Source: Trachipleistophora hominis
Taxonomy: Eukaryota; Microsporidia; Pleistophoridae
Direction of reading: 5' to 3'
DNA length: 11,237 nucleotides
NCBI GenBank assembly: GCA_000316135.1
Contig: JH994100.1
Coordinates: forward strand, 134,096 to 145,332
The notes below the pieces were generated by a model. It had not been told where the DNA came from and ran no database searches. It saw only the letters and a list, made by a program, of their open reading frames with translations. Within the stretch, counting starts at the first letter, position 1. Each line of letters begins with the position of its first letter. The position numbers and the translations under genes were made by a program. Of this stretch, positions 1-10,702 are shown in pieces.

Positions 1-177
1 TGCTTAGAATAGCTTTTTAGAATGGTTGAGGAGGTTATGGAGGAGAAATAGTGTTTAGATTGGATGTAGGATGTTATATTGAGAAATGTTACTATAAAAT
101 TTTTGATAGGACATGTGACAATATTTAAGATATTTTTAAGCCAGTTCTAACACTTACGATAGATGTAATATAAATTA

Positions 178-320
178 GACATTCTTTAGATATTATTAAT
201 GTAAATTTAATATTCTTTAAGATATTCTCTAACATTATTTAAGACGTTCTTTAATAAAATTTTAAGAAAATTTGATATTCTTTAAGATATTCTCAAGTTA
301 TTTAGACATTCTTAAGATGG
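178..320. repeat. Degenerate ~65-bp direct repeat, AT-rich
   Basis: Two imperfect copies with a period of 65 bp. The core TATTCTTTAAGATATTCTC occurs at 211-229 and again at 276-294, and each is followed by a TTATTTAAGAC / TTATTTAGAC block and another ATTCTTAAGA-like block. A weaker related stretch (GACATTCTTTAGATATT) starts at 178. The segment lies 250-380 bp upstream of the WOPR gene. No coding potential is seen. It may be simple tandem decay; a regulatory role is only a guess. Confidence 0.6.
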
Positions 321-563: not shown

Positions 564-1217
564 ATGATAAACCACGAGAGTTATTTCGGATGCATGCACA
601 AACTGTCGCACTATCTATCATTATTTCAGCTTGCAGTCAACCACGAAGTGCCGACGCTCAAAAGACGATTATCAGATACCGAAAAGAATGCAGTACGTGC
701 GGGCAGCACGTACATCTACTCAGAAAATGAGAGTGGCATTAGAAGATGGACAGACCATCTATCATGGACACCCTCACGTGCAAGTAACGAGTGCGTATTC
801 TACCAAGAGATTGCTAATCATAACCAGCCAATGCTCAAGAAAGTGGTAACTGCCACGATTGATAAATGCAAATGGCATATTGTGAACTATAGCACGGTGA
901 GCGACGAGATAACAGGCACGTGCTGTGCAAAATATCAGGCGGTGTACGACGTGCCAATAACACACAATATCGTTGTGAAAACTAAAGTGCGCTGCAGTAG
1001 GAACACGCTTAGAAAATCGCTTAGCAGGAATTATGTGCGTAATAACGCTAAGAAGATATACAGCTTTGTGGATGAGAGTAATTTGTATGGAAGACGAATG
1101 GATGTAAAGCTGTTGGCTAATCAGAACCATTTATATAGAAGGAAGAGTGAGGAGAGTGTGAATGATGAGAATGAGGAATGTGATACCTTTGATTATAAGC
1201 GGTCGTGTTATGATTGA
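564..1217 (+). CDS. WOPR-domain (Gti1/Pac2/Wor1-like) transcription regulator
   Basis: 217 residues. The protein is almost entirely a WOPR DNA-binding domain, the fungal family of Wor1, Ryp1, Gti1 and Pac2, which are nuclear master regulators of morphological or developmental switching. Visible hallmarks: an N-terminal helix block (residues 6-30, YFGCMHKLSHYLSLFQLA), RRLSDTE (34-40), AVRAGSTYIYSENESGIRRW (43-62) leading into TDHLSW and TPSR (63-72), YQE (80-82), then the second half LKKVVTATID (91-100) with WHIVNYS (104-110). The ATG at 564 is chosen because the family's first conserved block begins only about 5 residues after it. After about residue 145 the sequence is a basic then acidic tail (RRKSEESVNDENEECD) without similarity I recognise. 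At 217 residues it is much shorter than typical ascomycete members, consistent with genome reduction. Domain assignment is by motif recognition; which process it controls is not visible. Confidence 0.85.
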   Translation: MINHESYFGCMHKLSHYLSLFQLAVNHEVPTLKRRLSDTEKNAVRAGSTYIYSENESGIRRWTDHLSWTPSRASNECVFYQEIANHNQPMLKKVVTATIDKCKWHIVNYSTVSDEITGTCCAKYQAVYDVPITHNIVVKTKVRCSRNTLRKSLSRNYVRNNAKKIYSFVDESNLYGRRMDVKLLANQNHLYRRKSEESVNDENEECDTFDYKRSCYD

Positions 1218-1354
1218 AGGTTGTTTGTATTTTGGTGTGGTTTAATTAAAATGGTAATGGAATTAGGGTTTAACCTTTAATGGTGTGGAGATTAAATTTA
1301 TTTATTGTTGTGGTTTATTTTGGATTGTTATATTTTATCACGGGGGGTTGAATT

Positions 1355-1412
1355 GTTTTTTAACTAAAAGTCAGTTTAATTATCTTCTTCATACACGCTA
1401 CCTAATCAAACA
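1355..1412 (-). repeat. Dispersed ~55-bp intergenic element, copy A
   Basis: Read on the minus strand this contains GTTTGATTAGGTA, then GATAATTAAACTGACTTTTA and a GTTAAAAAA end. The same ordered blocks recur near 2520, 3411, 4751, 6271 and 10641. The element lies 138 bp downstream of the WOPR stop codon. Outer flanks differ from those of the other copies (a G6 run follows it on one side), so this is a bounded unit rather than a larger duplication. Confidence 0.7.
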
Positions 1413-1437
1413 CACTCTTCAAGGTTGGGTTGAATTG

Positions 1438-1756
1438 ATATGGTTACCAAAATATTAATGATTGGGATTGTTTATTACTAGTGTGAGTATATTATGCTAT
1501 ATCATATAATATAGTTAACTGGTATAGTAACAAAAATATTAATGGTTGGGATTGTTTATTACCATAACTAATTCTATTACATCATATCGTATAATATAGT
1601 TAACTGGTATAGTAACAAAAATATTGATGGTTGGGATTGTTTATTACCATAATTAATCCTATTATACCATATCGTATAATATAGTTAACTGGTATAGTAA
1701 CAAAAATATTAATGGTTCATAATTGTTTATTACCATAATTAATCCTATTATACCAT
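1438..1756. repeat. Tandem array of an ~85-bp unit, about 3.8 copies
   Basis: The landmark GGTTGGGATTGTTTATTACC recurs with period 84, 85 and 85 bp (GGG at 1464, 1548, 1633; the fourth unit at 1718 has diverged to CATAA). The last part of the unit, GTTAACTGGTATAGTAAC, is almost invariant in three copies. Units contain a near-palindrome; in the third one ATTATAC and GTATAAT flank 6 nt (1661-1680). The first and last units are the most diverged, as expected for unequal exchange. No open frame runs through the array, so it is a non-coding minisatellite. Confidence 0.9.
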
Positions 1757-2519
1757 GCCGTTGAATTATCAATATATTGACATATTCGTTCAAGTAATAA
1801 TATTTTCATTTAACCTTATATAACAACCAGGGCTTGTTTGATACACCGTAGGTTGAAAACAAACCATTGATTAGAATATGATGTAACCGTAAAAATTAAA
1901 AAGAACTCTTTTACGCTGGCATTTACTTGTCAATATGGTTGGTTTAACTATAAATAATGAGACAGGACGTATAACAACACAGTGTTTTGTCTGTTTGGTT
2001 CTTATAAAAGAGTTTTATATATTTATACATGCCTTACAACACTACACTTTGTGTTCTTTGGGACAGATCGTACAATCGGCCTACTTACATAAACTTTTCT
2101 TCTTGATATCACATTGTGTGTATTGTATAGTTAAGCGTTTCTGGTAAGACACATATGTTTATTTGAAGGTAGTTTGATGATGTTACTTACTGATTCGTTT
2201 AAATAAAGAAAAATAGTTATTACAATGTATAAGCAGCAATTATAGATAATTATTCTATAGTAGATATGAATAAGGATCTTCGTTTGATATTAAATGCTAT
2301 TTAGTGTTTAAAATTATTAATGTAAGATTTTTGAATAAAATGGAGCGTATTTCATAATATTTTTACGTTTTATTTCGTTAATACCGAATATTAGTAAAAG
2401 TTGTTTTAGTTTATTTTATTTACTATGCTATATGTTATAAATTTAATTATTTTTTGGAGTAAATTAAGTATAATTTGTAATCCTGCGTAAGTCTACGATT
2501 TATTGAAATTTTCAAATTC
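1757..2519. other. AT-rich intergenic spacer, no gene seen
   Basis: A 70-codon frame at 1935-2147 has no recognisable domain and scattered Cys/Phe composition typical of chance reading of AT-rich DNA. I see no tRNA, clear palindrome or repeat here. Confidence 0.5.
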
Positions 2520-2575
2520 TTTTTTACTTAAAGTCATTTTAATTATCACCTCACAACGTATCATCCAACCAAACT
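2520..2575 (-). repeat. Dispersed ~55-bp intergenic element, copy B
   Basis: On the minus strand: TTTGGTTGGATGATACGTTG, then TGAGGTGATAATTAAAATGA and CTTTAAGTAAAAAA. It shares the GATAATTAAA..GACTTT..GTAAAAAA core with copy A, but its left half (GGTTGGATG) matches copy C instead of the GATTAGGTA version in A, E and F. Confidence 0.7.
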
Positions 2576-2995
2576 AATTCTCAATTTTTTTACAAAAAGT
2601 GCTTGTTTATAAACCTCGTTACTTTTGATTAAATTATTAAGTTTAGTTAGTTACATTTACTTGCTAATCTATAATGTTATACCAGATTATTTTAAAGAGT
2701 TTATCATATCGATGCAATAGCGATATTACACACACCAAAGATATTTTAAACGTGTTTCTGTCAAGTAGTTTTTACTTGAATTAGTTTATTCATCACACAA
2801 TACTTTTCTTTCTTACAATTGCTTTACTTCCCTGTTTATTGCAGATCGTACCTATGTAAAATGAATGAAGCTCTCAATTCCAATATTTCTACAATATAAA
2901 CGGTGTTGTACTAATTTTACATAAAATCATGAAGTATTAACGCTTTCTATTTAGTAGCTGACAATATGGCGATATGTATCGCTTACAGCTGTTGA
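2576..2995. other. AT-rich intergenic spacer
   Basis: No open frame of note. The only structure seen is a perfect 14-bp palindrome-like GCGATA-TG-TATCGC at 2969-2982. Confidence 0.4.
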
Positions 2996-3169
2996 ACTTG
3001 CTTTCAAACCTTAAGGTTGAACACAATAAATTATTGTGCAGAAGGACTGAATCTTACACATTACTATGATGTTCGTGTGCATGCGATCGATTACGACTAT
3101 TTGTACACTTTATACGATATGGTGCATCGCATTCGTATTATGAACGAAGTCGTCGTTTCTATGGTTTAG
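2996..3169 (+). pseudogene. Possible decayed coding fragment
   Basis: A frame without an early ATG stays open for 57 codons between TGA (2993-2995) and TAG (3167-3169). Its last 37 codons (from 3059) read HYYDVRVHAIDYDYLYTLYD followed by MVHRIRIMNEVVVSMV, a composition unlike the Phe/Ile/Asn/Lys-rich chance frames of the surroundings. This part is also less AT-rich, with many CG dinucleotides. No family is recognised. It may be a fossil of a gene whose 5' part is lost, or chance; a second short hydrophobic frame (ATG at 3065) overlaps it. Confidence 0.2.
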
Positions 3170-3410
3170 AAGTTTTTTTGTTTATTACTGTGCCAATTTT
3201 ATTACTATTTGCTCATGTGAGAGCAGTGAGACCGTGTTGTATTAAAAATATGTTGTTATTCTTTGATCATAATTATATTGCATTCTTATAGGTTCTTTTA
3301 ATATATTTTTTGGCAGATTTCAGAGTAAACAATTTAATTAGGGCAATCTCTTTAAAGAATGTAACTCGCATGTCAATGTAGTAAATAGTGCGACTTATAT
3401 GGAATTTTTT

Positions 3411-3465
3411 CTTTTTTAAAAAAGTTAGTTTAATTATTACCTCATACAACAACATCCAACCAAAA
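3411..3465 (-). repeat. Dispersed ~55-bp intergenic element, copy C
   Basis: On the minus strand: TTTGGTTGGATGTTGTTGTA, then TGAGGTAATAATTAAACTAA and CTTTTTTAAAAAAG. It is closest to copy B in its left half and keeps the AATTAAACT..CTTTT..AAAAAA core. Intergenic, 0.5 kb upstream of the secreted-protein gene. Confidence 0.65.
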
Positions 3466-3975
3466 TTGAACTTTGCTGAGTCTTTAATCGATTTCCTAAT
3501 AAAGAAAACAGTTTGTGATAAATAATGAATGTAATTACTGCTTCAGTTCGGCTTATTATATGGAGAATGATCTATGATAATTACAGAATGTAATTATTTC
3601 TTTAAATATACTCACTATCTAGGAAGCAGCTCATACCGTTTCTAGCAGATTTGTAATGTTTTTATTTTGTGAACAAAAATTTGCATAGTAACTCAGTTAG
3701 ACTACAAAATAAATTTAAGCTGTTACACTCACACTACATCTTTTTCTTCTTACATATTTATTTAGAAGCTCTTATACACATTCTACGATGTATGGTGAAG
3801 CTTTGCAGCCTCTGGCGTAAAAATCCTCGTATAACAAAAATTTTGCCTTATTTACACGCACGTGCTCTTTCCTAACACTGATGTTTCCCCTTCTACAGTC
3901 AAACCACGAATCACAATCAAAACAGCGCATACTAACACAAATCGTGTTTCACTCCAAAGTATAAAAAAGAACGAA
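3466..3975. other. Spacer and upstream region of the secreted-protein gene
   Basis: Frames reading through here begin only at GTG codons (3669, 3862) and have no recognisable content. TATAAAA occurs at 3960-3966, about 10 nt before the chosen ATG. TTTCCCCTTCTACAG (3884-3898) resembles a 3' splice site, but no upstream exon was found for it. Confidence 0.4.
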
Positions 3976-4578
3976 ATGATAAAATTAATGAATATTCTGC
4001 ATTTGATTAGTACAACCACGTTATTTACCTTTGTACTCACCTTCTCCAACAAAAAAAAGAACGGAAAAAAAGAGCCAAAAGATGAATTGGTCAAGAAAGA
4101 TGATGTTATACTGCAACCAAGCTTTGGCATCTTCGATAATAAGAACGACAAGACCAACAAGAACCACAAGGATGACAACATCCGAGATACATTCAAGGAT
4201 AGCGATAAGATAGCACCTATATTCACGAAAGATAAGCGGGACGACAAGAAAGAATCTGACGATAAAGATAAAGAAAAGGAAATAAGCAATGAAATAATGA
4301 CACAGAGTAGTTATAAACCACCTATGGTAACAATGCTGCTCAACAAAAACAAGAAAGAGGATGAAAGGAAAGAGCAGCTTGCTGAGTATGACCAGATGAG
4401 ACCCATTATGAATGACGCGCTGAAGAATCTTTATTCGGCCGTGAGCACTATGGATAAACTGGCAAATGTTTTGAGAGACGATATGAAGAAGGGAGAAGAG
4501 AAGAAAATGAAAAGTAGTGCACCCGAGGAGAGGATTGACTATAAAATTATTGAAGTTACCGATAACGACGGAAAATAA
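3976..4578 (+). CDS. Predicted secreted Lys/Asp-rich protein, lineage-specific
   Basis: 200 residues from the ATG at 3976. The frame is open further upstream but only from GTG, and the ATG places a signal peptide exactly at the N terminus: MIK, then a hydrophobic core LMNILHLISTTTLFTFVLTF (residues 4-23). The mature part has no cysteine and is highly charged (KKKNGKKEPKDELVKKDD from 26; KDKRDDKKESDDKDKEKE near 95), so most of it is probably disordered. A more ordered helical stretch, DQMRPIMNDALKNLYSAV then STMDKLANVL, lies around residues 139-166. No family recognised. By analogy with other secreted low-complexity microsporidian proteins it may act at the spore surface or in the host, but that is inference. 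Single exon. Confidence 0.75.
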   Translation: MIKLMNILHLISTTTLFTFVLTFSNKKKNGKKEPKDELVKKDDVILQPSFGIFDNKNDKTNKNHKDDNIRDTFKDSDKIAPIFTKDKRDDKKESDDKDKEKEISNEIMTQSSYKPPMVTMLLNKNKKEDERKEQLAEYDQMRPIMNDALKNLYSAVSTMDKLANVLRDDMKKGEEKKMKSSAPEERIDYKIIEVTDNDGK

Positions 4579-4583
4579 ATAAA
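4574..4583 (+). terminator. Polyadenylation signals overlapping the stop codon
   Basis: Two overlapping AATAAA hexamers (4574-4579 and 4578-4583); the first contains the TAA stop at 4576-4578. Overlap of stop codon and poly(A) signal is in keeping with the very short 3' UTRs of microsporidia. Confidence 0.55.
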
Positions 4584-4750
4584 ATTGTTAATGTTAACGT
4601 AATTTATTTTTATTGATATTAAATCTACATATATGAAAATTATTATATTATGATATAAAGCATTTGAACGATTAATAGTAGTATGTTTAGTTAACTAGTA
4701 ATATTTTTTTAAAAATTCAAGTATATGAGTACAACAATACATTCATTGAT

Positions 4751-4845
4751 GTGTTATAACTGTAATATTGTGAGATGATAATTAAACTGACTTTTGCTAA
4801 AAAATGTGTTATAACCGTATTAAAATGATAATTAAGTTTACAAAA
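4751..4845 (+). repeat. Dispersed element, copy D plus an adjacent partial copy
   Basis: The first unit (4751-4806) has GTTATAACTG, then TTGTGAGATGATAATTAAAC, TGACTTTTGC and TAAAAAA. It is followed directly by a shorter, more diverged unit, GTGTTATAACCGTATTAAAA then TGATAATTAAG (to 4845). This is the only locus with a tandem pair and the first in plus orientation. Confidence 0.65.
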
Positions 4846-6270
4846 CAATATGCGTATAAATAATTTATATGTGCATATCCTATCAATATTTTAAACCATG
4901 AGTTTGCACAACAACACTTTAATTAATAAACTAGTATGGTAGGACTAAGAATTTGTCATTGATAATAACTTAATTTCAATTTAATTGTATATTTGCTTAT
5001 GAATGGTGTGACGTAGCGAGGTGAGTGGTAATTGAAGTAATAAGTAAATTATATTTAATTAAAAAATTAATTCAATTGTATATGCCTTTGGTTAAAATTA
5101 AACACCGTGATTGTCATTGATAGTACGATAACTTTCATCCTATTAAATAGCATATCGATAGGATATGAATCCATGAATATATAGTGAACAGTTTTATTAA
5201 TGAACTTTTTACCTATCGAAGACGAAAATGAATCACAAAATTATGTAAAATATGATAATAATCTAGTTGTTATTGACATAATGGCACAAATTTAGAATTA
5301 ATTTCTCAAATAGTTGACCAAACATACACCCGAGTTAAGTTATAATTTATTTCTTTTCAAAAATGCCTTATTTATCTGTAGTTGAAGGTATAATAATCGT
5401 TTTGAGCACATGTATTATTCTAATAATATTTTTCTTATATCTTAACTTTCACAAACAAATATCATAATTAACCATTTACTAGCGCAGATAGTTATTGTTA
5501 AGAATTACATTTGTTTATAAACATGTTACCATCAACATTAATAAAAGATACCACAAAAGAAAACTGATGTGTTTAGGAAAAAAAAATAATTTCATGTTTT
5601 TATAACAATCGAGGACAACGCATCGTTATGTAATTTTCTGGTTCAGAAACATACTTAATAATCTTTTATTTAAGGTACTTGAAGAAAACTCTGACGCTGG
5701 CTGTGAAGTAATTTTTTGAACTGCTGTTAAAAAATGAAAGTTACGTGAAATTAATTATATTAAACATGAAAACGGAACTAAACAATATAAACTGTTCCTT
5801 AATTTATACAAGTCAACCTTTCGTTTTTTAAACGGCGTAGCTGCTGTATGTTAAATTACTATTCAATCAACAATTATCTTCCTTGTTAGTACGATATTCA
5901 TCAATTAAACTGTTTCAAATTATGATGAAAACCATACATCAGGGTTTTATTATTAAAAATGCTATTGTCTGCGTTTAAAAAGTATATTTTCAATATTTTA
6001 TAACTTCAAATACTTAATAAGCAATGTGATCTATTTTAATGATTGGTATCGAATTAGTAAACCAAGATAAGTTGGACGTATTCATGGTTATAATGTATGT
6101 TAATATAAACAATAAAGACGTAATTAATATATTATGAATTGTTATTCGTGATACATCGTTACCTAATTAGAAATTTTTATCACTATAATATTTGAAATAG
6201 AATAAGTTATGTGGTGATTAGCGATACTTGATCGCAAATAATAGGATGTATGTATCGCAAAAACGACGAA
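4846..6270. other. Long AT-rich spacer
   Basis: About 1.4 kb without a convincing gene apart from the small frame at 5363. Weak internal similarity is visible: TTGTCATTGATA with ATAACTT near 4956 and again near 5112, and AATTGTATAT near 4983 and 5075. A short inverted repeat, CATATC/GATATG, lies at 5151-5167. No RNA gene seen. Confidence 0.45.
5363..5467 (+). CDS. Possible 34-residue single-pass membrane peptide
   Basis: ATG at 5363, TAA at 5465-5467. The peptide begins MPYLSVVEG, has one long hydrophobic segment (IIIVLSTCIILIIFFLYL, residues 10-27) and ends with a short polar tail NFHKQIS. A CCC triplet lies at 5329-5331, about 32 nt upstream, in a TACACCCGAG context that recalls the C-rich boxes of the derlin and Rad17 genes. 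The topology resembles small tail-anchored subunits, but no family is recognised. In DNA this AT-rich, Ile/Leu/Phe strings arise by chance, so this is a candidate only. Confidence 0.2.
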   Translation: MPYLSVVEGIIIVLSTCIILIIFFLYLNFHKQIS

Positions 6271-6334
6271 GAGTGTATTTTATTAGGTAGTGTGGATGAA
6301 GGAGATAATTGAATTGACTTGTAGTTAAAAAAAT
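6271..6334 (+). repeat. Dispersed ~55-bp intergenic element, copy E
   Basis: GAGTGTATTTTATTAGGTAG, TGTGGATGAAGGAGATAATT, GAATTGACTTGTAGTTAAAA AAA in order. It is closest to copy A, with which it also shares the leading GAAGAGTGT (6268-6276 here). About 340 bp upstream of the 360-residue secreted-protein gene. Confidence 0.65.
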
Positions 6335-6615
6335 TGCAAAGACAGTGGAAAAATAAATAAAATATACAAAAAGACGAGTTGAGAGATTTTTGCCGGTTAG
6401 AAAGCGCTACGATTGGCTATAGAAGCAATTTAACCAGAACATTATCTCATTCTATACATAAATACAATAACAACAGATTCGTAATTTTAATATTTTTTAA
6501 TTAGAAAACAACCAGTTAAACGATTTTAATCAACCTTTAAACTTATGAATCGAATAAAAACCATCATTTATATGAACTACAGAGTTAACTACATTTTTAA
6601 TGCGTTTAGAACTAG

Positions 6616-6624
6616 TATATAAAA
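6616..6624 (+). promoter_or_regulatory. TATA-like element of the 360-residue secreted-protein gene
   Basis: TATATAAAA lies 52 nt 5' of the ATG at 6677, a spacing that would give a leader of roughly 20-30 nt. No C-rich box is present in front of this gene, in contrast to the derlin and Rad17 genes. Confidence 0.35.
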
Positions 6625-6676
6625 CAAAATCATACTTTTGTTCTAGAACATAATTGAAGTAATCTATAAATACGAA

Positions 6677-7759
6677 ATGTACATTATCTGTATGTTCATT
6701 TTATTTATAAATGTTTTACAGTGCACGAATATAGTAGAACAACGGATCAGCACTTTAAAAACAAAATTATGTAAGACAGTGAGCAACTTTCATGTTGACG
6801 AGGAACAGATGACGTACGTTAAGAACTGTGCGCAGATTAGAATTGCGCGTGAGCTACTAGTTGGTTATCAAACAGAGTGTTCAGTGCTTAAGCTGAATTT
6901 GTGGAATATAGTCAATGAGTGGAAGAATGGTGTAAGGTTATACGTCACTGAAATGGCGAGTGAAATTAAAAGTTGTGTAACGAAATGGAAGAAGGAATGC
7001 ATCGATAGTGTTATAAGAATTGTGGAGAGTTCAGAACAGGATAAAAGTATTGAAGATGTGAAAGTTACCATCAAAAATGAGGAAATAGGAGATGAGAAAG
7101 ATGTAAACTATATTATACAAGAATACGATGTAGAAAATAAAGAAACAAGGAGAAAACAAGGAGATATAAATGAAAATAGTACAATACAACCTGATACAAG
7201 CATGTATATACATCGTAATGATAAACGTTACTTTAAATCGTGGAACACGGGAATAGATCGTAGGAGTAGAGATAGAGATGTAATTAATATGATGGTTGCA
7301 ATCAACAGACTCTTCATTTCAGACAAAGACATAGATATAGCTGTTAATACGTATTTAGAGAGGGTGTATAAAAATGTTTATGATCCAACAGTTAAACTAT
7401 TCAATAGTAGTGGTTTATTACACAGCAGAATAATTAATAGCGTATCGGAGTACATTATAAAATATTTTTTGACTGTGAATGACAAGAGAACATTTATAGA
7501 CAAGGATATAACACGCCTCTACGATTGTATTAATGATAAATTAAAAGAATACAAACAAAACTATAAGAAGAAAATGGATATAACAAATGTAAAGGTAACA
7601 AATTTTATCAAACTATCATTATTAGAATTATATAAACGATATAACATAGAAATAAATGATTATCTGGAGAGATTGAATACATTATTAGAAGAATTATTTT
7701 TAAGGCATAAGAGACAGCACATTAAGAAATATGAGGAAGTAAAACTTGTGTTTCATTAA
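6677..7759 (+). CDS. Predicted secreted, largely helical protein, lineage-specific
   Basis: 360 residues from the first ATG of the frame. Residues 1-16 (MYIICMFILFINVLQC) form a short signal peptide. Three parts follow: an N-terminal helical region (17-118) carrying five cysteines (32, 51, 68, 100, 108) that could form disulfides; a charged linker (about 119-190) rich in Asp/Glu/Asn/Lys; and a C-terminal helical region (195-360) with regularly spaced Leu/Ile/Tyr (LYDCINDKLKEYKQNYKKKM, residues 281-300; YLERLNTLLEELFLRHKR, 329-346) and one cysteine (284). No transmembrane segment after the signal, no retention motif (ends VFH). No family recognised. Export to the wall, polar tube or host is inferred only from the signal peptide. 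Single exon; long spacers on both sides. Confidence 0.8.
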   Translation: MYIICMFILFINVLQCTNIVEQRISTLKTKLCKTVSNFHVDEEQMTYVKNCAQIRIARELLVGYQTECSVLKLNLWNIVNEWKNGVRLYVTEMASEIKSCVTKWKKECIDSVIRIVESSEQDKSIEDVKVTIKNEEIGDEKDVNYIIQEYDVENKETRRKQGDINENSTIQPDTSMYIHRNDKRYFKSWNTGIDRRSRDRDVINMMVAINRLFISDKDIDIAVNTYLERVYKNVYDPTVKLFNSSGLLHSRIINSVSEYIIKYFLTVNDKRTFIDKDITRLYDCINDKLKEYKQNYKKKMDITNVKVTNFIKLSLLELYKRYNIEINDYLERLNTLLEELFLRHKRQHIKKYEEVKLVFH

Positions 7760-8330
7760 TATTAGTACAAAGGAATGGTTTAAATACGTTACATGCATGT
7801 GCTAAAGAATGTTATGGTTTATTTTGTAATTATGGTTAAGTGTGCTAGGGTAACTAATCATATTTGGCACGTGCAAATTGCTAAAAATAGCATATTAACA
7901 CCAACCTTAAAATTTATTGCCAATAAATAGAACGATAGTTCTACCTAATGCGTAGAAATACCTATAGCATAAATTTAGCACTAATAATTGCTCAGGTTAT
8001 TATTTTTTGGTTTCTGATTTCTACAAAACGTCTTTCTGTAACAACGTTGTTATTGAACGCATACTAAAACAAGCCCACATCCAATAACGCGTAGAAATTA
8101 AGACAGGTTGTTTGGAAAGTGTAAATATTGTTTTGACACGGCTCTTTACATGCCATTACATAGTTATAGCTTGCATTCTTAGATGATGCGCAGTTATCAG
8201 TTAAAATACTTTCAAAAGCAACAGTATGATAAAACCATAAACACTTCGTATAACAGCATTACTGTTTTCGAAACCTTTTGCCATAAAATTTTTGTTTGCC
8301 TGCCATCGACTGCATTTTAATATTTCAATT
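7760..8330. other. Intergenic spacer upstream of derlin
   Basis: No gene, tRNA or copy of the dispersed element seen. A GCACGTGC palindrome occurs near 7867. Confidence 0.45.
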
Positions 8331-8340
8331 TTTCACCCTT
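8331..8340 (+). promoter_or_regulatory. C-rich ACCCTT start-proximal box of derlin
   Basis: TTTTTCACCCTT runs directly into the ATG at 8341 (ACCCTT at 8335-8340). C-rich (CCC/GGG) motifs just upstream of the start codon are a described promoter feature in several microsporidia. The same ACCCTT after a T-run occurs upstream of the Rad17 gene. It also supports the ATG at 8341 as the start. Confidence 0.5.
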
Positions 8341-9024
8341 ATGTTGCAACTTGAGACTGTTCCGCCCGTTGTTCTTGCGATTCTTCTATGCGCATCTGTT
8401 ATTCCATTGCTCGGCCTGCTATCACCACAGTTTACGATGTATTTTGTTTATGACAAATCGTATCTCAAAAGATTCGAGATATGGCGGTTATTTACAGGAA
8501 TATTTGTAACCGGTGTAAGTATATCACTGATAATGAGGCTCTATTTCATACATAAGTTCAGTTCGTTAATACTAGAGTACAACTGTCGTATCGATCATGT
8601 GCCCACAGAGATCGAACTCGCATTCTTTATGTTTACCATGTTTGTGCCGCTGATGATAGGAAATCAGCTGGAGGGCATTAACACGTTCTCAGAATGCATT
8701 CCTATTGCACTGATAAGATATTTCAGTGAACTTGTGCCCGATAATTTCAGGTTGAACTTTTTTGGCACGATAATGTCTGCCAAGACGTACAGCATCGTCT
8801 CTCTTGCTATTGATTATGTGCTTAACGGTGGTCGTTCCAAGGTTTACTACGGCTTTCTGCATGCACTTATTTATGTTTATCTGAGAAAGAAAGTCCTCAG
8901 AGTGCCGGCCGTGTTTGTTGAAATGATAGAACGAGCTAAGAGAATAAAGTTGGAAAGATTGTTTCGTACCCCTGAGGTGGGACGAAGGCTGGGTGGTGAA
9001 AAGAAAAATAAGAAAAAGGATTAG
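8341..9024 (+). CDS. Derlin (Der1-like ERAD membrane protein)
   Basis: 227 residues, near the usual derlin size. Derlins are rhomboid-fold pseudoproteases of the ER membrane that help move misfolded proteins to the cytosol with the Hrd1 ligase and Cdc48/p97. Seen here: TVPPVV start and first membrane helix (6-28), SPQFTMYFVY (28-37), the family's WR motif in EIWRLFTGIF (46-55), further hydrophobic helices (56-72, 92-107, 150-160, 171-182), and YGFLHALIYVYLRKKVLRVP (170-189), matching the last-helix G-x-x-x-H-x-x-x-Y pattern. The tail has FRTPEVGRRLGG (208-219), somewhat like a Cdc48-binding SHP box, and ends lysine-rich. Start: ATG 8341 just after an ACCCTT box; upstream in frame there is only a TTG. 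Convergent with the Rad17 gene. Confidence 0.85.
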   Translation: MLQLETVPPVVLAILLCASVIPLLGLLSPQFTMYFVYDKSYLKRFEIWRLFTGIFVTGVSISLIMRLYFIHKFSSLILEYNCRIDHVPTEIELAFFMFTMFVPLMIGNQLEGINTFSECIPIALIRYFSELVPDNFRLNFFGTIMSAKTYSIVSLAIDYVLNGGRSKVYYGFLHALIYVYLRKKVLRVPAVFVEMIERAKRIKLERLFRTPEVGRRLGGEKKNKKKD

Positions 9025-9025
9025 A

Positions 9026-9031
9026 AATAAA
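9026..9031 (+). terminator. Polyadenylation signal of derlin
   Basis: AATAAA begins 1 nt after the TAG stop (9022-9024), the same tight stop/poly(A) arrangement as at 4574. Confidence 0.5.
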
Positions 9032-9368
9032 AAAACGTATTAAATCGATTTATTCGTCCGACTTGTACATTTTTTTTCTTAGAAAGCCTTTATTTATCAT
9101 CTAAAGATACTTTCTCCCATATATATTTTTGTATTAAGGAGGGTTAAATACGGCATATGATCGTTAATTTACAAGTAATCTGTTCTATAGATTTATTATT
9201 CATGTAGATGGCAAGGACGCGGTTAGTAATTTCTTTTCTATGATAGGTTCATTGAATGGGCTTAATTAGTTATGGATACGTTGAATTGGGCGGTACAATC
9301 TTATACCAGCCCGATAAGAATTGATACACACGTTTTGACGTGTTTTATTTTATGGAGAGATCGGATAT
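9032..9368. other. Convergent spacer between derlin and Rad17
   Basis: No gene seen. It holds an AATAAA on the minus strand (9344-9349), about 20 nt past the Rad17 stop and probably its poly(A) signal. A 5-bp hairpin ACACG/CGTGT lies at 9328-9343. Confidence 0.45.
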
Positions 9369-10357
9369 TCAAGACAAGTCTTCAAATTCGTTCTTATAAT
9401 GCAGATGGATCGGTGATTGGCACGGGGGCTTAAACGAAATAAACTGGCCAGCTCTCCTATTTTTTATATGATACGCCATGTGAGTTATCAATTCATAACA
9501 GTGGCGTGCATATAAAAGAGAAAGATCGTCACAGAATGCATCATCATAATCATAGAAGAGCAAATAATTCTCAAACAAAAATTTTATGACGGTCTTGTTG
9601 TCAAAATAGTTGTGGTCTTTGTACGAAGGTTTTGAGTAAAATATTTTTCCTAGATAATGAAATATTGTGATTTGATTGGTGTAAGAAAATGTGAAAATAT
9701 TGGATGCTGAAAAAACGTAAGGGAAGAGATGCATGTTGCCTTGGAATATTGTTAGATCAGGGTTTACGTTGCTGTGAAGTGCTGATGATCGGAGGTGATC
9801 CTTAAACGAGGTGTTTGTTTTGTAAGGTATCATAGCTCTGCTTAAACATAAGTTTTGGGTCGTTCTACTGTTAATCGTATGAGTAAAGCTTGGCTCGTTC
9901 ATAAAACTTCGTTCGTTGTGCATGCTCTGTTTAATCTTCTGGTTGTTGTCGTAGATTCAGTGTATTCTCTCAAAACTTTTCTAATCTTTATGGCACTCAC
10001 CTTCCCAAACTTTATAAGCATAGCATTTCTTTCTCTCCCAACACTGCTAATACACCGGCTCTCTATAACAACGTTGTTTCTTGGCATATTTCTGAGATCT
10101 CGAATATCATCTGTATCAATGTATATAACATGTTTTTTGAAAAGAGTCTTTCCGCTAAATTTATCGGGTTCCATCACGTATTCCAATTGCATATCAAGCA
10201 TGGCAGCAATACTTCTTATATGAAATGATTTGCCGGTTCCAGTCGGTCCGTATATTAACAACGGCGTATTTGAAATATTTTTGAACGCGCCAATCAATTG
10301 GTCTAGTTTGTTTTTTGATAATGTAGATATTTTATATAATGAGCTGTGAGTGTCCAT
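9369..10357 (-). CDS. RAD17: Rad17/Rad24-like checkpoint clamp loader, split over two frames
   Basis: Rad17 (Rad24 in budding yeast) is an AAA+ ATPase that, with Rfc2-5, loads the 9-1-1 clamp at DNA damage. The first frame (10357 to TGA 9899-9901, 152 codons) has Walker A GPTGTGKS (residues 37-44), a Walker B-like VIYIDTDD (77-84), NVVIES (95-100), and IKFGKVSAIKIRKVL (115-129), matching the post-Walker helix of the family. The second frame (ending TGA 9369-9371) has IFHYLGKIFYSK (9630-9662), the Rad17 signature around LGKI-YSK, and LFENYLLFYDYDDAF (9534-9578), the NY-DF-DD block. The order and strand fit one gene; joining needs a -1 shift between about 9956 and 9902, or a spliced segment. 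ATG 10357 follows an in-frame TAA directly, so the usual N-terminal W-x-x-Y-x-P part is absent. The total of just over 300 residues is far below the usual 500-680. It may be a reduced functional gene with a sequencing error, or a young pseudogene. Confidence 0.75.
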
Positions 10358-10368
10358 TTAAAGGCTTG

Positions 10369-10387
10369 GTGGGAATTCGTAAAGGGT
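10369..10387 (-). promoter_or_regulatory. C-rich boxes upstream of the Rad17 start
   Basis: On the minus strand TTTTTTGACCCTTTACG precedes the ATG at 10357, with ACCCTT at 10387-10382 (25-30 nt upstream), followed by CCCACC at 10374-10369. The T-run plus ACCCTT is the same as in front of derlin. Confidence 0.45.
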
Positions 10388-10541
10388 CAAAAAATATTTT
10401 AATGATGTTAGCGAATTTGTACTGTGGTTAGATCAATAAGACGGAAAGAATTTGTTTGTTTATATTAAAGTATACAAAGAGAAAAATAAATACGAGGAAT
10501 AGGACAACATTTTTGTCAATCAAAAGGATCGTTATTTGTTT

Positions 10542-10676
10542 TTATTTATCGTAACACGTGCACACTTTTTCGCAATCCGCTGGGGTTTTGTCCATGAACC
10601 AGAGGCCGGTGGCTATGGTTGGTCCCAGCAGACAAAAAAAGCGTGTTTGATTAGGTAATGTGATGGTGTAAATCAA
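10542..10676 (-). pseudogene. GC-rich 3' coding remnant, 5' end lost at the dispersed element
   Basis: An open minus-strand frame with no early ATG (44 codons, after a TAA at 10679-10677). Its last 30 codons, LLGPTIATGLWFMDKTPADC then EKVCTCYDK, look like the end of a real protein: balanced composition, a hydrophobic stretch and a Cys-rich tail. The segment 10571-10630 is 36/60 GC, about twice the surroundings. The TAA stop (10544-10542) overlaps an AATAAA (10546-10541), as in the 3976 gene. The GC-rich part stops at about 10640, exactly where dispersed-element copy F begins. The only in-frame ATG (10595) would give 17 residues. Family not recognised. Alternatives: a terminal exon, or a very short secreted-type peptide. 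Confidence 0.35.
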
Positions 10677-10702
10677 TTAAACCGCTTTTAGTAAAAAAAC
10701 TG
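10641..10702 (+). repeat. Dispersed ~55-bp intergenic element, copy F
   Basis: GCGTGTTTGATTAGGTAATG, TGATGGTGTAAATCAATTAA, ACCGCTTTTAGTAAAAAAAC in order. The left half matches copy A (GTGTTTGATTAGGTA). Just beyond the A-run it carries GGGTTGGATAAC, reminiscent of the GGTTGGAT block that copies B and C have on the other side. It borders the GC-rich coding remnant. Confidence 0.65.

What the first reader, a model, noticed from the sequence alone, without database searches (positions are those of the whole stretch)
1355..10702. A dispersed ~55-bp intergenic element at six loci in both orientations
Loci 1355-1412, 2520-2575, 3411-3465 (minus) and 4751-4845, 6271-6334, 10641-10702 (plus) share ordered blocks around GATAATTAAACTGACTTTTA and an A-run end. 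All are intergenic. Two left-half types are visible: GTGTTTGATTAGGTA (A, E, F) and TTTGGTTGGATG (B, C). The A-run at one end, small size and independent flanks could fit a non-autonomous mobile element of retroposed type, a solo terminal sequence of a larger element, or a conserved transcription-end or chromatin element. I do not recognise it as a named family.
Basis: seen in the sequence. Interest (0 to 1): 0.75.

Follow-up and report, generated by a model that had tools for sequence, protein, structure and literature searches.

The report
Tiny retroposed tails of a LINE
The six short intergenic repeats are copies, most of them cut short, of a roughly 110-base piece from the end of a jumping gene (a LINE) in the parasite Trachipleistophora hominis, pasted into many gene-free places by reverse transcription.

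Summary
The repeat is real. Its 20-base core (up to 3 mismatches) occurs 280 times in the window's 5.5 Mb genome, against 2 for the reversed pattern. The genome is Trachipleistophora hominis: a protein that NCBI names so is encoded letter for letter. Copies have target-site duplications (median 13 bp), a TT|AA target and an A-run end, as expected of target-primed reverse transcription; in the window only A and D have clear duplications.

The sequence is the 3' UTR of a degraded non-LTR retrotransposon, but most copies do not look like ordinary truncated LINEs. Of 110 core-selected copies, 75 end inside a ~110-nt unit, 24 at its start (CCATGAAC, 6 nt past the LINE stop codon), none in the next 75 nt, and 11 run into the LINE. 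A second family repeats this: 18 of 24 start at the same motif, with unrelated upstream sequence. On a tree, unit and LINE-attached copies are mixed, so units probably arose repeatedly. No Pol III box above chance and no Rfam relative was found.

Best reading: SINE-like, 3'-UTR-only retroposons. How the ~110-nt RNA is made (internal CCC-type promoter or RNA processing) is open.

The parts
1356..1426 (-). Copy A, family F1, 5'-truncated unit, about 71 bp
   Evidence: Model hit E 3e-11; exact core; perfect 11-bp duplication on both sides, 1 of 300 random pairings as good
1345..1355 (.). Target-site duplication of copy A, 3' side of the element (CAATTCAACCC on the minus strand)
1427..1437 (.). 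Target-site duplication of copy A, 5' side of the element
2520..2575 (-). Copy B, family F1, TTTGGTTGGATG subfamily, 5'-truncated
   Evidence: Model hit E 2e-4; duplication doubtful (about 8% of random pairings as good)
3410..3464 (-). Copy C, family F1, same subfamily as B, 5'-truncated
   Evidence: Model hit E 2e-3; no convincing duplication
4765..4803 (+). Copy D, family F1, very short 5'-truncated copy of 39 bp
   Evidence: Core with 1 mismatch; 16-bp duplication with 1 mismatch, 2 of 300 random pairings as good; not listed by the model at E up to 1
4749..4764 (.). Target-site duplication of copy D, 5' side
4804..4819 (.). Target-site duplication of copy D, 3' side
6264..6332 (+). Copy E, family F1, 5'-truncated
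   Evidence: Model hit E 1e-7; duplication not above chance (8 bp with 1 mismatch; 29% of random pairings as good)
10592..10699 (+). Copy F, nearly full-length F1 unit that starts at CCATGAACCAGAGGCCGG
   Evidence: Model hit E 2e-15 over the whole model; head pattern with 1 mismatch at G000:C117:144687; no duplication above chance

Best explanation
These are non-autonomous, SINE-like retroposons whose whole sequence is the roughly 110-nt 3' untranslated region of a non-LTR retrotransposon of Trachipleistophora hominis. SHOWN by sequence: the 3' end with its A-run is shared with LINE-attached copies; copies carry 9-21 bp target-site duplications at TT|AA; most copies are truncated at the 5' side; full-length short copies begin within about 2 nt of CCATGAAC, 6 nt after the LINE stop codon, in F1 and F2 (one case read in F3). 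INFERRED: the LINE enzyme nicks the target, primes on it and copies mainly a discrete RNA of about 110 nt that starts at CCATG, and only rarely the long LINE mRNA. INFERRED: units arose repeatedly from different LINE subfamilies. OPEN: how the RNA gets its 5' end. I favour, about equally, a promoter at the LINE ORF/3'UTR junction (CACTAATTTCCTCC before ATG, like the microsporidian AAATTT-CCC-ATG signal) and 5' processing or exonuclease arrest at the structured head (stem-loops SL1 and SL2).
For: 280 core matches against 2 control. Duplication scores of 10 or more in 38 of 110 copies against about 3.7 of 110 in shuffled pairing. Unit-length set: 26 of 59 at score 9 or more against 3 of 175; the upstream duplication ends at 0, -1 or -2 of the CC in 22 of 26. 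5' ends of 110 copies: 75 inside the unit, 24 at its start, 0 in the next ~75 nt, 11 beyond. Whole-genome counts at up to 3 mismatches: head 127, LINE body 65 nt upstream 29, zinc-knuckle region ~290 nt upstream 12, controls 0; of the 100 head places listed, 17 have the body pattern upstream. Of 41 head places read, 30 stop at the head, 6 run into the F1 LINE, 1 runs 12 nt, 4 are family F3. RT pieces match RVT_1 and, for one piece, R2 and L1 enzymes. Family F2: 18 of 24 start at the same motif, upstream sequences unrelated (best 52% over 40 nt), duplications at score 8 or more in 10 of 18 against 1 of 87. LINE and unit labels mixed on the tree (15 changes, shuffled mean 15.6); a single LINE clade rejected, p-AU 4e-6. 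TT|AA target. Head stem-loops covary in F2 (score reached by 2 of 500 shuffles, 20 of 24 copies used).
Against: Four of the six window copies (B, C, E, F) lack a convincing duplication, and so do most genome copies at the thresholds used; age could explain it. The tree rests on 107 columns with few strong forks (5 of 69 inner branches starred). F2 showed no LINE body in 24 places, so a promoter that exists only inside a LINE does not explain F2 unless its LINEs are lost or missing from this 5.5 Mb assembly (8.5 Mb published). F1 covariation is weak (whole structure: score reached by 36 of 500 shuffles; 5' stem alone 7 of 500), the alternative F1 head fold shows none beyond shuffles, and relatedness alone can beat such shuffles. 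One copy (L105) ends 12 nt and one (L131) about 78 nt upstream of the head. The head sample left out two places known to carry the LINE body. No RNA evidence was available.
Confidence: 0.85

Rival explanations
1. Ordinary 5'-truncated LINE copies: the enzyme starts on full LINE mRNA and usually falls off within the last 110 nt.
For: 3' end shared with LINE-attached copies; truncation is the rule for LINEs (recalled); 75 of 110 copies end inside the unit.
Against: Ends pile up at one position in F1 and F2 (one F3 case), and none of 110 fall in the next ~75 nt although 11 copies run further; the head pattern is 4.4 times commoner than the LINE body 65 nt upstream. An enzyme that has already opened the head stem-loops has no obvious reason to stop just past them.
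Confidence: 0.1
2. A true SINE with its own internal promoter, which LINEs pick up repeatedly as a new 3' end by template switching.
For: F2 has unit-length copies but no LINE body in 24 places; L167 joins an F1 LINE body to an F3 3' end, so tails do get swapped; the tree mixes LINE and unit.
Against: No Pol III A or B box better than in shuffled sequence; no Rfam family in the unit at E up to 5 in 14 loci; the unit starts with C, unusual for Pol III (recalled).
Confidence: 0.25
3. A conserved regulatory element (transcription end, insulator or chromatin site) rather than a mobile one.
For: 0 of 35 selected copies lie in ORFs of 120 aa or more.
Against: Duplications, graded 5' truncation and subfamily structure.
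Confidence: 0.02
4. A DNA transposon remnant (MITE) or solo LTR.
For: Nosema genomes hold MITEs (PMC4405373; abstract opening in a listing, and one passage); gypsy-like elements occur in this genome.
Against: Duplications vary from 9 to 21 bp, truncation is one-sided, there is an A-run end, and the sequence is the LINE 3' UTR.
Confidence: 0.01

Closest known systems
SINEs that share a 3' tail with a partner LINE (general knowledge; recalled)
   Same: Short, non-autonomous, dispersed, target-site duplications, 3' end shared with a LINE
   Different: The usual tRNA-, 7SL- or 5S-derived Pol III head was not found; the whole unit is the LINE 3' UTR
Non-LTR elements of Trachipleistophora hominis (Heinz et al. 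2012, PMC3486916: abstract, sections 7, 8 and 21 read, other passages seen; Parisot et al. 2014, PMC4202319: passages seen, table lists 9 LINE families for T. hominis)
   Same: Same species and LINE kind; Heinz et al. report expansion and frameshifted coding sequences
   Different: What I saw mentions no short non-autonomous units; the word 'sine' has 0 occurrences in either main text. Supplements were not open to me
Trypanosomatid short retroposons with the Pr77 hallmark, such as SIDER (PMC4035085, PMC8190864, PMC5509151; abstract openings seen in a search listing; detail recalled)
   Same: Parasite genomes with short retroposons that share a structured segment with their LINE
   Different: There the shared segment is the LINE 5' end (promoter and HDV-like ribozyme); here it is the 3' UTR and no Rfam ribozyme matched
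Entamoeba SINEs (PMC3118788, PMC3716655; abstract openings seen in search listings)
   Same: SINE and LINE partnership in a protist parasite
   Different: No sequence comparison was made here
Nosema MITEs (PMC4405373; abstract opening and one passage seen)
   Same: Short non-autonomous repeats in microsporidia
   Different: DNA elements with inverted repeats, not retroposons

Membership tests
SINE | Short, non-coding, dispersed, many copies | tested here: met
   Unit about 110 nt; 280 core matches; roughly 850 copies by scaling 16 off-centre model hits at E below 0.01 in ~103 kb of 34 selected loci, a rough figure
SINE | Variable-length target-site duplications | tested here: met
SINE | 3' end shared with a partner LINE | tested here: met
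   17 LINE-attached copies in the joint set of 76; not seen for F2 (0 of 24)
SINE | Internal Pol III promoter (A and B box) | tested here: not met
   Best box matches no better than shuffled sequence in F1 or F2; a consensus scan only, so a divergent promoter is possible. For this reason called SINE-like
SINE | Head derived from tRNA, 7SL or 5S RNA | tested here: not met
   No Rfam match at E up to 5 in 14 loci except two weak snoRNA hits outside the unit
SINE | Mobilised in trans by LINE proteins | not testable with these tools
   -
5'-truncated LINE copies | 5' ends spread through the LINE body | tested here: not met
   0 of 110 between +10 and +84, 24 at the unit start, 11 beyond
L1-like (APE) target-primed insertion | TT|AA target and duplications of roughly 7-20 bp (recalled) | tested here: met
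   T at -1 in 27 of 41, T at -2 in 23 of 41, A at first duplication base in 27 of 41; 9-21 bp, median 13
L1-like (APE) target-primed insertion | Endonuclease domain in the LINE | not tested
   Only RT and zinc-knuckle pieces were seen
Known ribozyme at the 5' end (HDV-like, hammerhead) | Match to a ribozyme family | tested here: not met
   No ribozyme family in Rfam at E up to 5 in 14 loci
MITE or solo LTR | Fixed-length duplication | tested here: not met
   9-21 bp

The most novel reading that the evidence does not exclude
LINE families of one microsporidian each give off a discrete ~110-200-nt RNA of their own 3' UTR, started at an internal promoter of the microsporidian CCC type or trimmed back to a covarying stem-loop head, and this RNA, not the full LINE mRNA, is the main template of insertion. 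SINE-like elements would then be born over and over from LINE tails without any Pol III gene.
Probability: 0.4. Interest if true: 0.72.

Novelty: new variant of a known kind. Interest (0 to 1): 0.56.

Why it matters
T. hominis is unusually gene-sparse for a microsporidian (mean spacer 1.18 kb; PMC3486916 section 7), and these units are one visible contributor to its spacers. SINEs are thought to begin by joining a Pol III gene to a LINE tail (recalled); a system in which the LINE tail alone is the unit, with a fixed 5' end in F1 and F2 and probably repeated origins in F1, offers another route and makes it testable. My full-text searches listed no paper whose title or abstract opening describes a SINE-like family in a microsporidian: 20 listed of 804 papers; 17 of 17; 6 of 6; 15 of 33; 9 of 9; 1 of 1. 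Unlisted papers, most subscription journals and supplements were not searched.

Tried and rejected
Rfam at gathering threshold on the window: no match; at E up to 5 on 14 loci: only two weak snoRNA hits outside the unit. tRNA scan of the window: none. Microsporidian SSU rRNA family in the genome: none found, so the organism was fixed by exact protein identity and two nucleotide transporters instead. Pol III boxes: no signal. F1 head fold with GGCC/GGCC and ACCA/TGGT: no covariation beyond shuffles; the CCATG/CATGG fold does slightly better. A coding reading of the head (ATG AAC ...) was dropped because, by eye, F1 and F3 differ by a frame-shifting length between the stems. A ribosome parked at the stop codon as roadblock was considered: the recalled ribosome edge (~10 nt past the stop) does not fit the 6 nt seen. 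The Der1 protein search gave two relatives besides the window's own, without names.
Full report
OBSERVATION. The window is G000:C117:134096-145332 of a 5.51 Mb genome in 119 contigs. The core GATAATTAAACTGACTTTTA with up to three mismatches occurs 280 times in the genome (147 forward, 133 reverse), against 2 for the reversed pattern. A covariance model from 29 copies elsewhere in the genome recovers five of the six window copies at E 2e-15 to 2e-3. Copy D (39 bp) is below its reach, but it has the core and a 16-bp duplication. In 34 of the 3-kb loci the same model finds 16 further hits at E below 0.01 away from the selected core (two of them abut it, in L006 and L037) in about 103 kb, which scales to roughly 850 copies. 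This is a rough figure, since the loci were chosen for holding a copy.

ORGANISM. An RT fragment search returned a protein that NCBI names for Trachipleistophora hominis (P0008); it is encoded letter for letter in contig C21 (L031, L046, L047). Two ATP/ADP transporters of family PF03219 are present, typical of microsporidia (recalled; the abstract of PMC3486916 also names such transporters). In 25 unfiltered ORFs of 120 aa or more, CCC lies within 12 nt of the start codon in 6, against 2.8% of 8,385 ATGs, the microsporidian start signal (PMC2803860: abstract and section 8 read). The microsporidian SSU rRNA family gave no hit in this assembly. This genome is 5.5 Mb, the published assembly 8.5 Mb, so counts are lower bounds.

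RETROPOSITION. I collected 110 copies with at most three core mismatches from loci L001-L103 and the window; those loci were fetched around the 100 places listed of the 280, plus the hits. Matching the sequence after the A-run to the upstream flank gives a score of 10 or more in 38 of 110, against about 3.7 of 110 when flanks are swapped between copies; six of the 38 put the start more than 130 nt upstream of the core and may be chance. Duplications in 41 well-placed cases are 9-21 bp, median 13; T precedes the duplication in 27 of 41, T is at -2 in 23 of 41, and A is its first base in 27 of 41. That is the TT|AA pattern of L1-like endonucleases (recalled). In the window, A (11 of 11) and D (15 of 16) are clear; B, C, E and F are not. 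None of 35 central copies lies in an ORF of 120 aa or more, although 26% of flanking bases do.

THE LARGER ELEMENT. Several copies continue upstream into a shared sequence that ends in an ORF; a C-x2-C...H...C knuckle is read there by eye. Nine RVT_1 hits were found in the genome: five have stops inside the match, four do not, two loci (L039, L042) are gypsy-like, and in the LINE-type loci the enzyme is split between frames. Two RT pieces match RVT_1 at 2e-10 and 2e-13; the one compared with solved structures matches R2 and L1 enzymes at E 4e-11 and 3e-8. Heinz et al. 2012 likewise report frameshifted non-LTR elements (PMC3486916 section 8). A transcriptome paper reports that expression differs strongly within a family of retrotransposon reverse transcriptases, some members having none detectable (PMC4654818, passages seen).

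A DISCRETE UNIT. I extended each of the 110 copies upstream against ten LINE-attached references. In LINE coordinates 75 end inside the unit, 24 end within -1 to +9 of its ATGAA, none ends from +10 to +84, and 11 go further. Two of the 24 need a note: L069 is a LINE copy with an internal deletion, and L074 belongs to family F2. A second sample was chosen by the head, not the core: 40 loci from the 100 places listed of 127, at 0-2 mismatches, leaving out places already held and also two (C45:56197, C96:39987) known to carry the LINE body. Of the 41 head places in it, 30 show no upstream extension scoring 5 or more, 6 run into the LINE, L105 runs 12 nt, and 4 are family F3 (tally 34, 1 and 6). 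Free of that choice, 17 of the 100 listed head places have the LINE-body pattern 52-65 nt upstream. Across the whole genome the head pattern has 127 matches, the LINE body 65 nt upstream 29 and the knuckle region about 290 nt upstream 12, all with zero controls. In the joint set of 59 unit-length copies (the four F3 rows and L105 left in), 26 have a duplication score of 9 or more against 3 of 175 swapped pairings, and in 22 of the 26 the upstream duplication ends 0 to 2 nt before CCATG. In LINE copies the stop codon (TAA, in L133 and L040 TGA) ends about 6 nt before the unit, after a frame that is open for the whole ~103 codons looked at in L007, L009 and L079 and interrupted in others.

INDEPENDENT FAMILIES. 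Family F2 (47 pattern matches; 24 places read) has a different sequence in the second stem and the tail. Eighteen of 24 start at CATGAAC; their upstream 40 nt are unrelated (best 52%); duplications score 8 or more in 10 of 18 against 1 of 87. No F2 copy in this sample carries a shared upstream body. Family F3 (13 matches) was read at nine distinct places: six share a body of their own; L137 is cut about 7 nt upstream, with a duplication by eye; L164 is a unit-length copy that starts at CCATG with a matching 13-base duplication by eye; and L167 joins the F1 body to the F3 tail.

ORIGIN OF UNITS. On a tree of 72 sequences (four F3 rows dropped; one F2 row, L074, left in) 17 LINE-attached and 55 unit copies are mixed: 15 changes of label, shuffled mean 15.6, 211 of 500 shuffles as low. 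Holding the LINE copies together is rejected (p-AU 4e-6). The alignment has 107 columns and few strong forks; starred branches force only three changes. I read this as repeated birth of units from LINE 3' ends; tail swapping is the alternative.

RNA STRUCTURE. The head folds into two stem-loops. In F2 (20 of 24 copies aligned, four truncated or diverged ones left out) the inner SL1 and SL2 stems covary: covariation score reached by 2 of 500 shuffles, cells paired by 5 of 500. In F1 (29 copies) a 5' stem CCATG/CATGG, whose base is the unit's first nucleotide, has a covariation score reached by 7 of 500 shuffles, the whole structure by 36 of 500, and an alternative fold of the F1 head shows nothing beyond shuffles. 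The tool warns that relatedness alone can exceed such shuffles. SL2 keeps its pairing between families (GGTCC/GGACC in F1, GGCGC/GCGCC in F2, and GCCC/GGGC in F3, by eye).

HOW THE RNA MAY BE MADE. Not shown. (a) Promoter: most F1 LINE copies read CACTAATTTCCTCC or close to it before the ATG of the unit, and F3 bodies read CCTCC, TCTCC or CTTCC before it. Microsporidian genes have an AAATTT-like signal, a CCC-like motif and 5' UTRs under 7 nt (PMC2803860), and CCC is upstream of 977 T. hominis genes (PMC3486916 section 7). The junction is not clearly more conserved than its surroundings, so this is resemblance only. Units would lose this promoter on insertion, which fits the mixed tree, but F2 without a LINE body does not fit easily. 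(b) Processing or exonuclease arrest at the head: fits the 5' end at the stem base and the covarying head in F2. (c) Pol III: no boxes better than shuffled sequence, no Rfam relative. I give (a) and (b) about 0.35 each within the main reading.

NOVELTY. SINE-like retroposons that share a LINE tail are a known kind; a unit that is only the LINE 3' UTR, with a fixed 5' end in F1 and F2 and no detectable Pol III head, is a variant I do not know. The listings (some capped: 20 of 804 papers, 15 of 33) show no description of it in microsporidia; in the main text of Parisot et al. (PMC4202319) 'SINE' has no occurrence.

Noticed in passing
window 1406-1744: Tandem ~85-bp units next to copy A: three at 78-100% to the reference unit and a fourth at 60%
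   Followed up: no
window 177-294: Imperfect 65-bp-spaced repeat around ATATTCTTTAAGATATTCTC
   Followed up: no
window 564-1217, 8341-9024, 9899-10357: Genes for a Gti1/Pac2 (WOPR) regulator, a Der1-like protein and an AAA-type ATPase piece; the Der1 start is preceded by CAATTTTTCACCCTT, much like the microsporidian start signal
   Followed up: partly
L074, L144-L163: Second retroposon family F2 (47 pattern matches), unit-length copies but no LINE body in 24 places read
   Followed up: yes
L121, L137, L142, L143, L164-L170: Third family F3 with a longer tail; L167 joins an F1 LINE body to an F3 tail
   Followed up: partly
L043, L045 (and L040, the same place as L045): Broken LINE pieces lie beside ORFs that look like leucine-rich-repeat proteins (by eye); two contigs share both, as if duplicated together
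   Followed up: no
L039, L042: Ty3/gypsy-like pol fragments, found by the RT family search
   Followed up: no
L006 (1410-1608): What looks like one copy inserted into the head of another, with a 19-bp duplication made of element sequence; a head-to-tail pair is not excluded
   Followed up: partly
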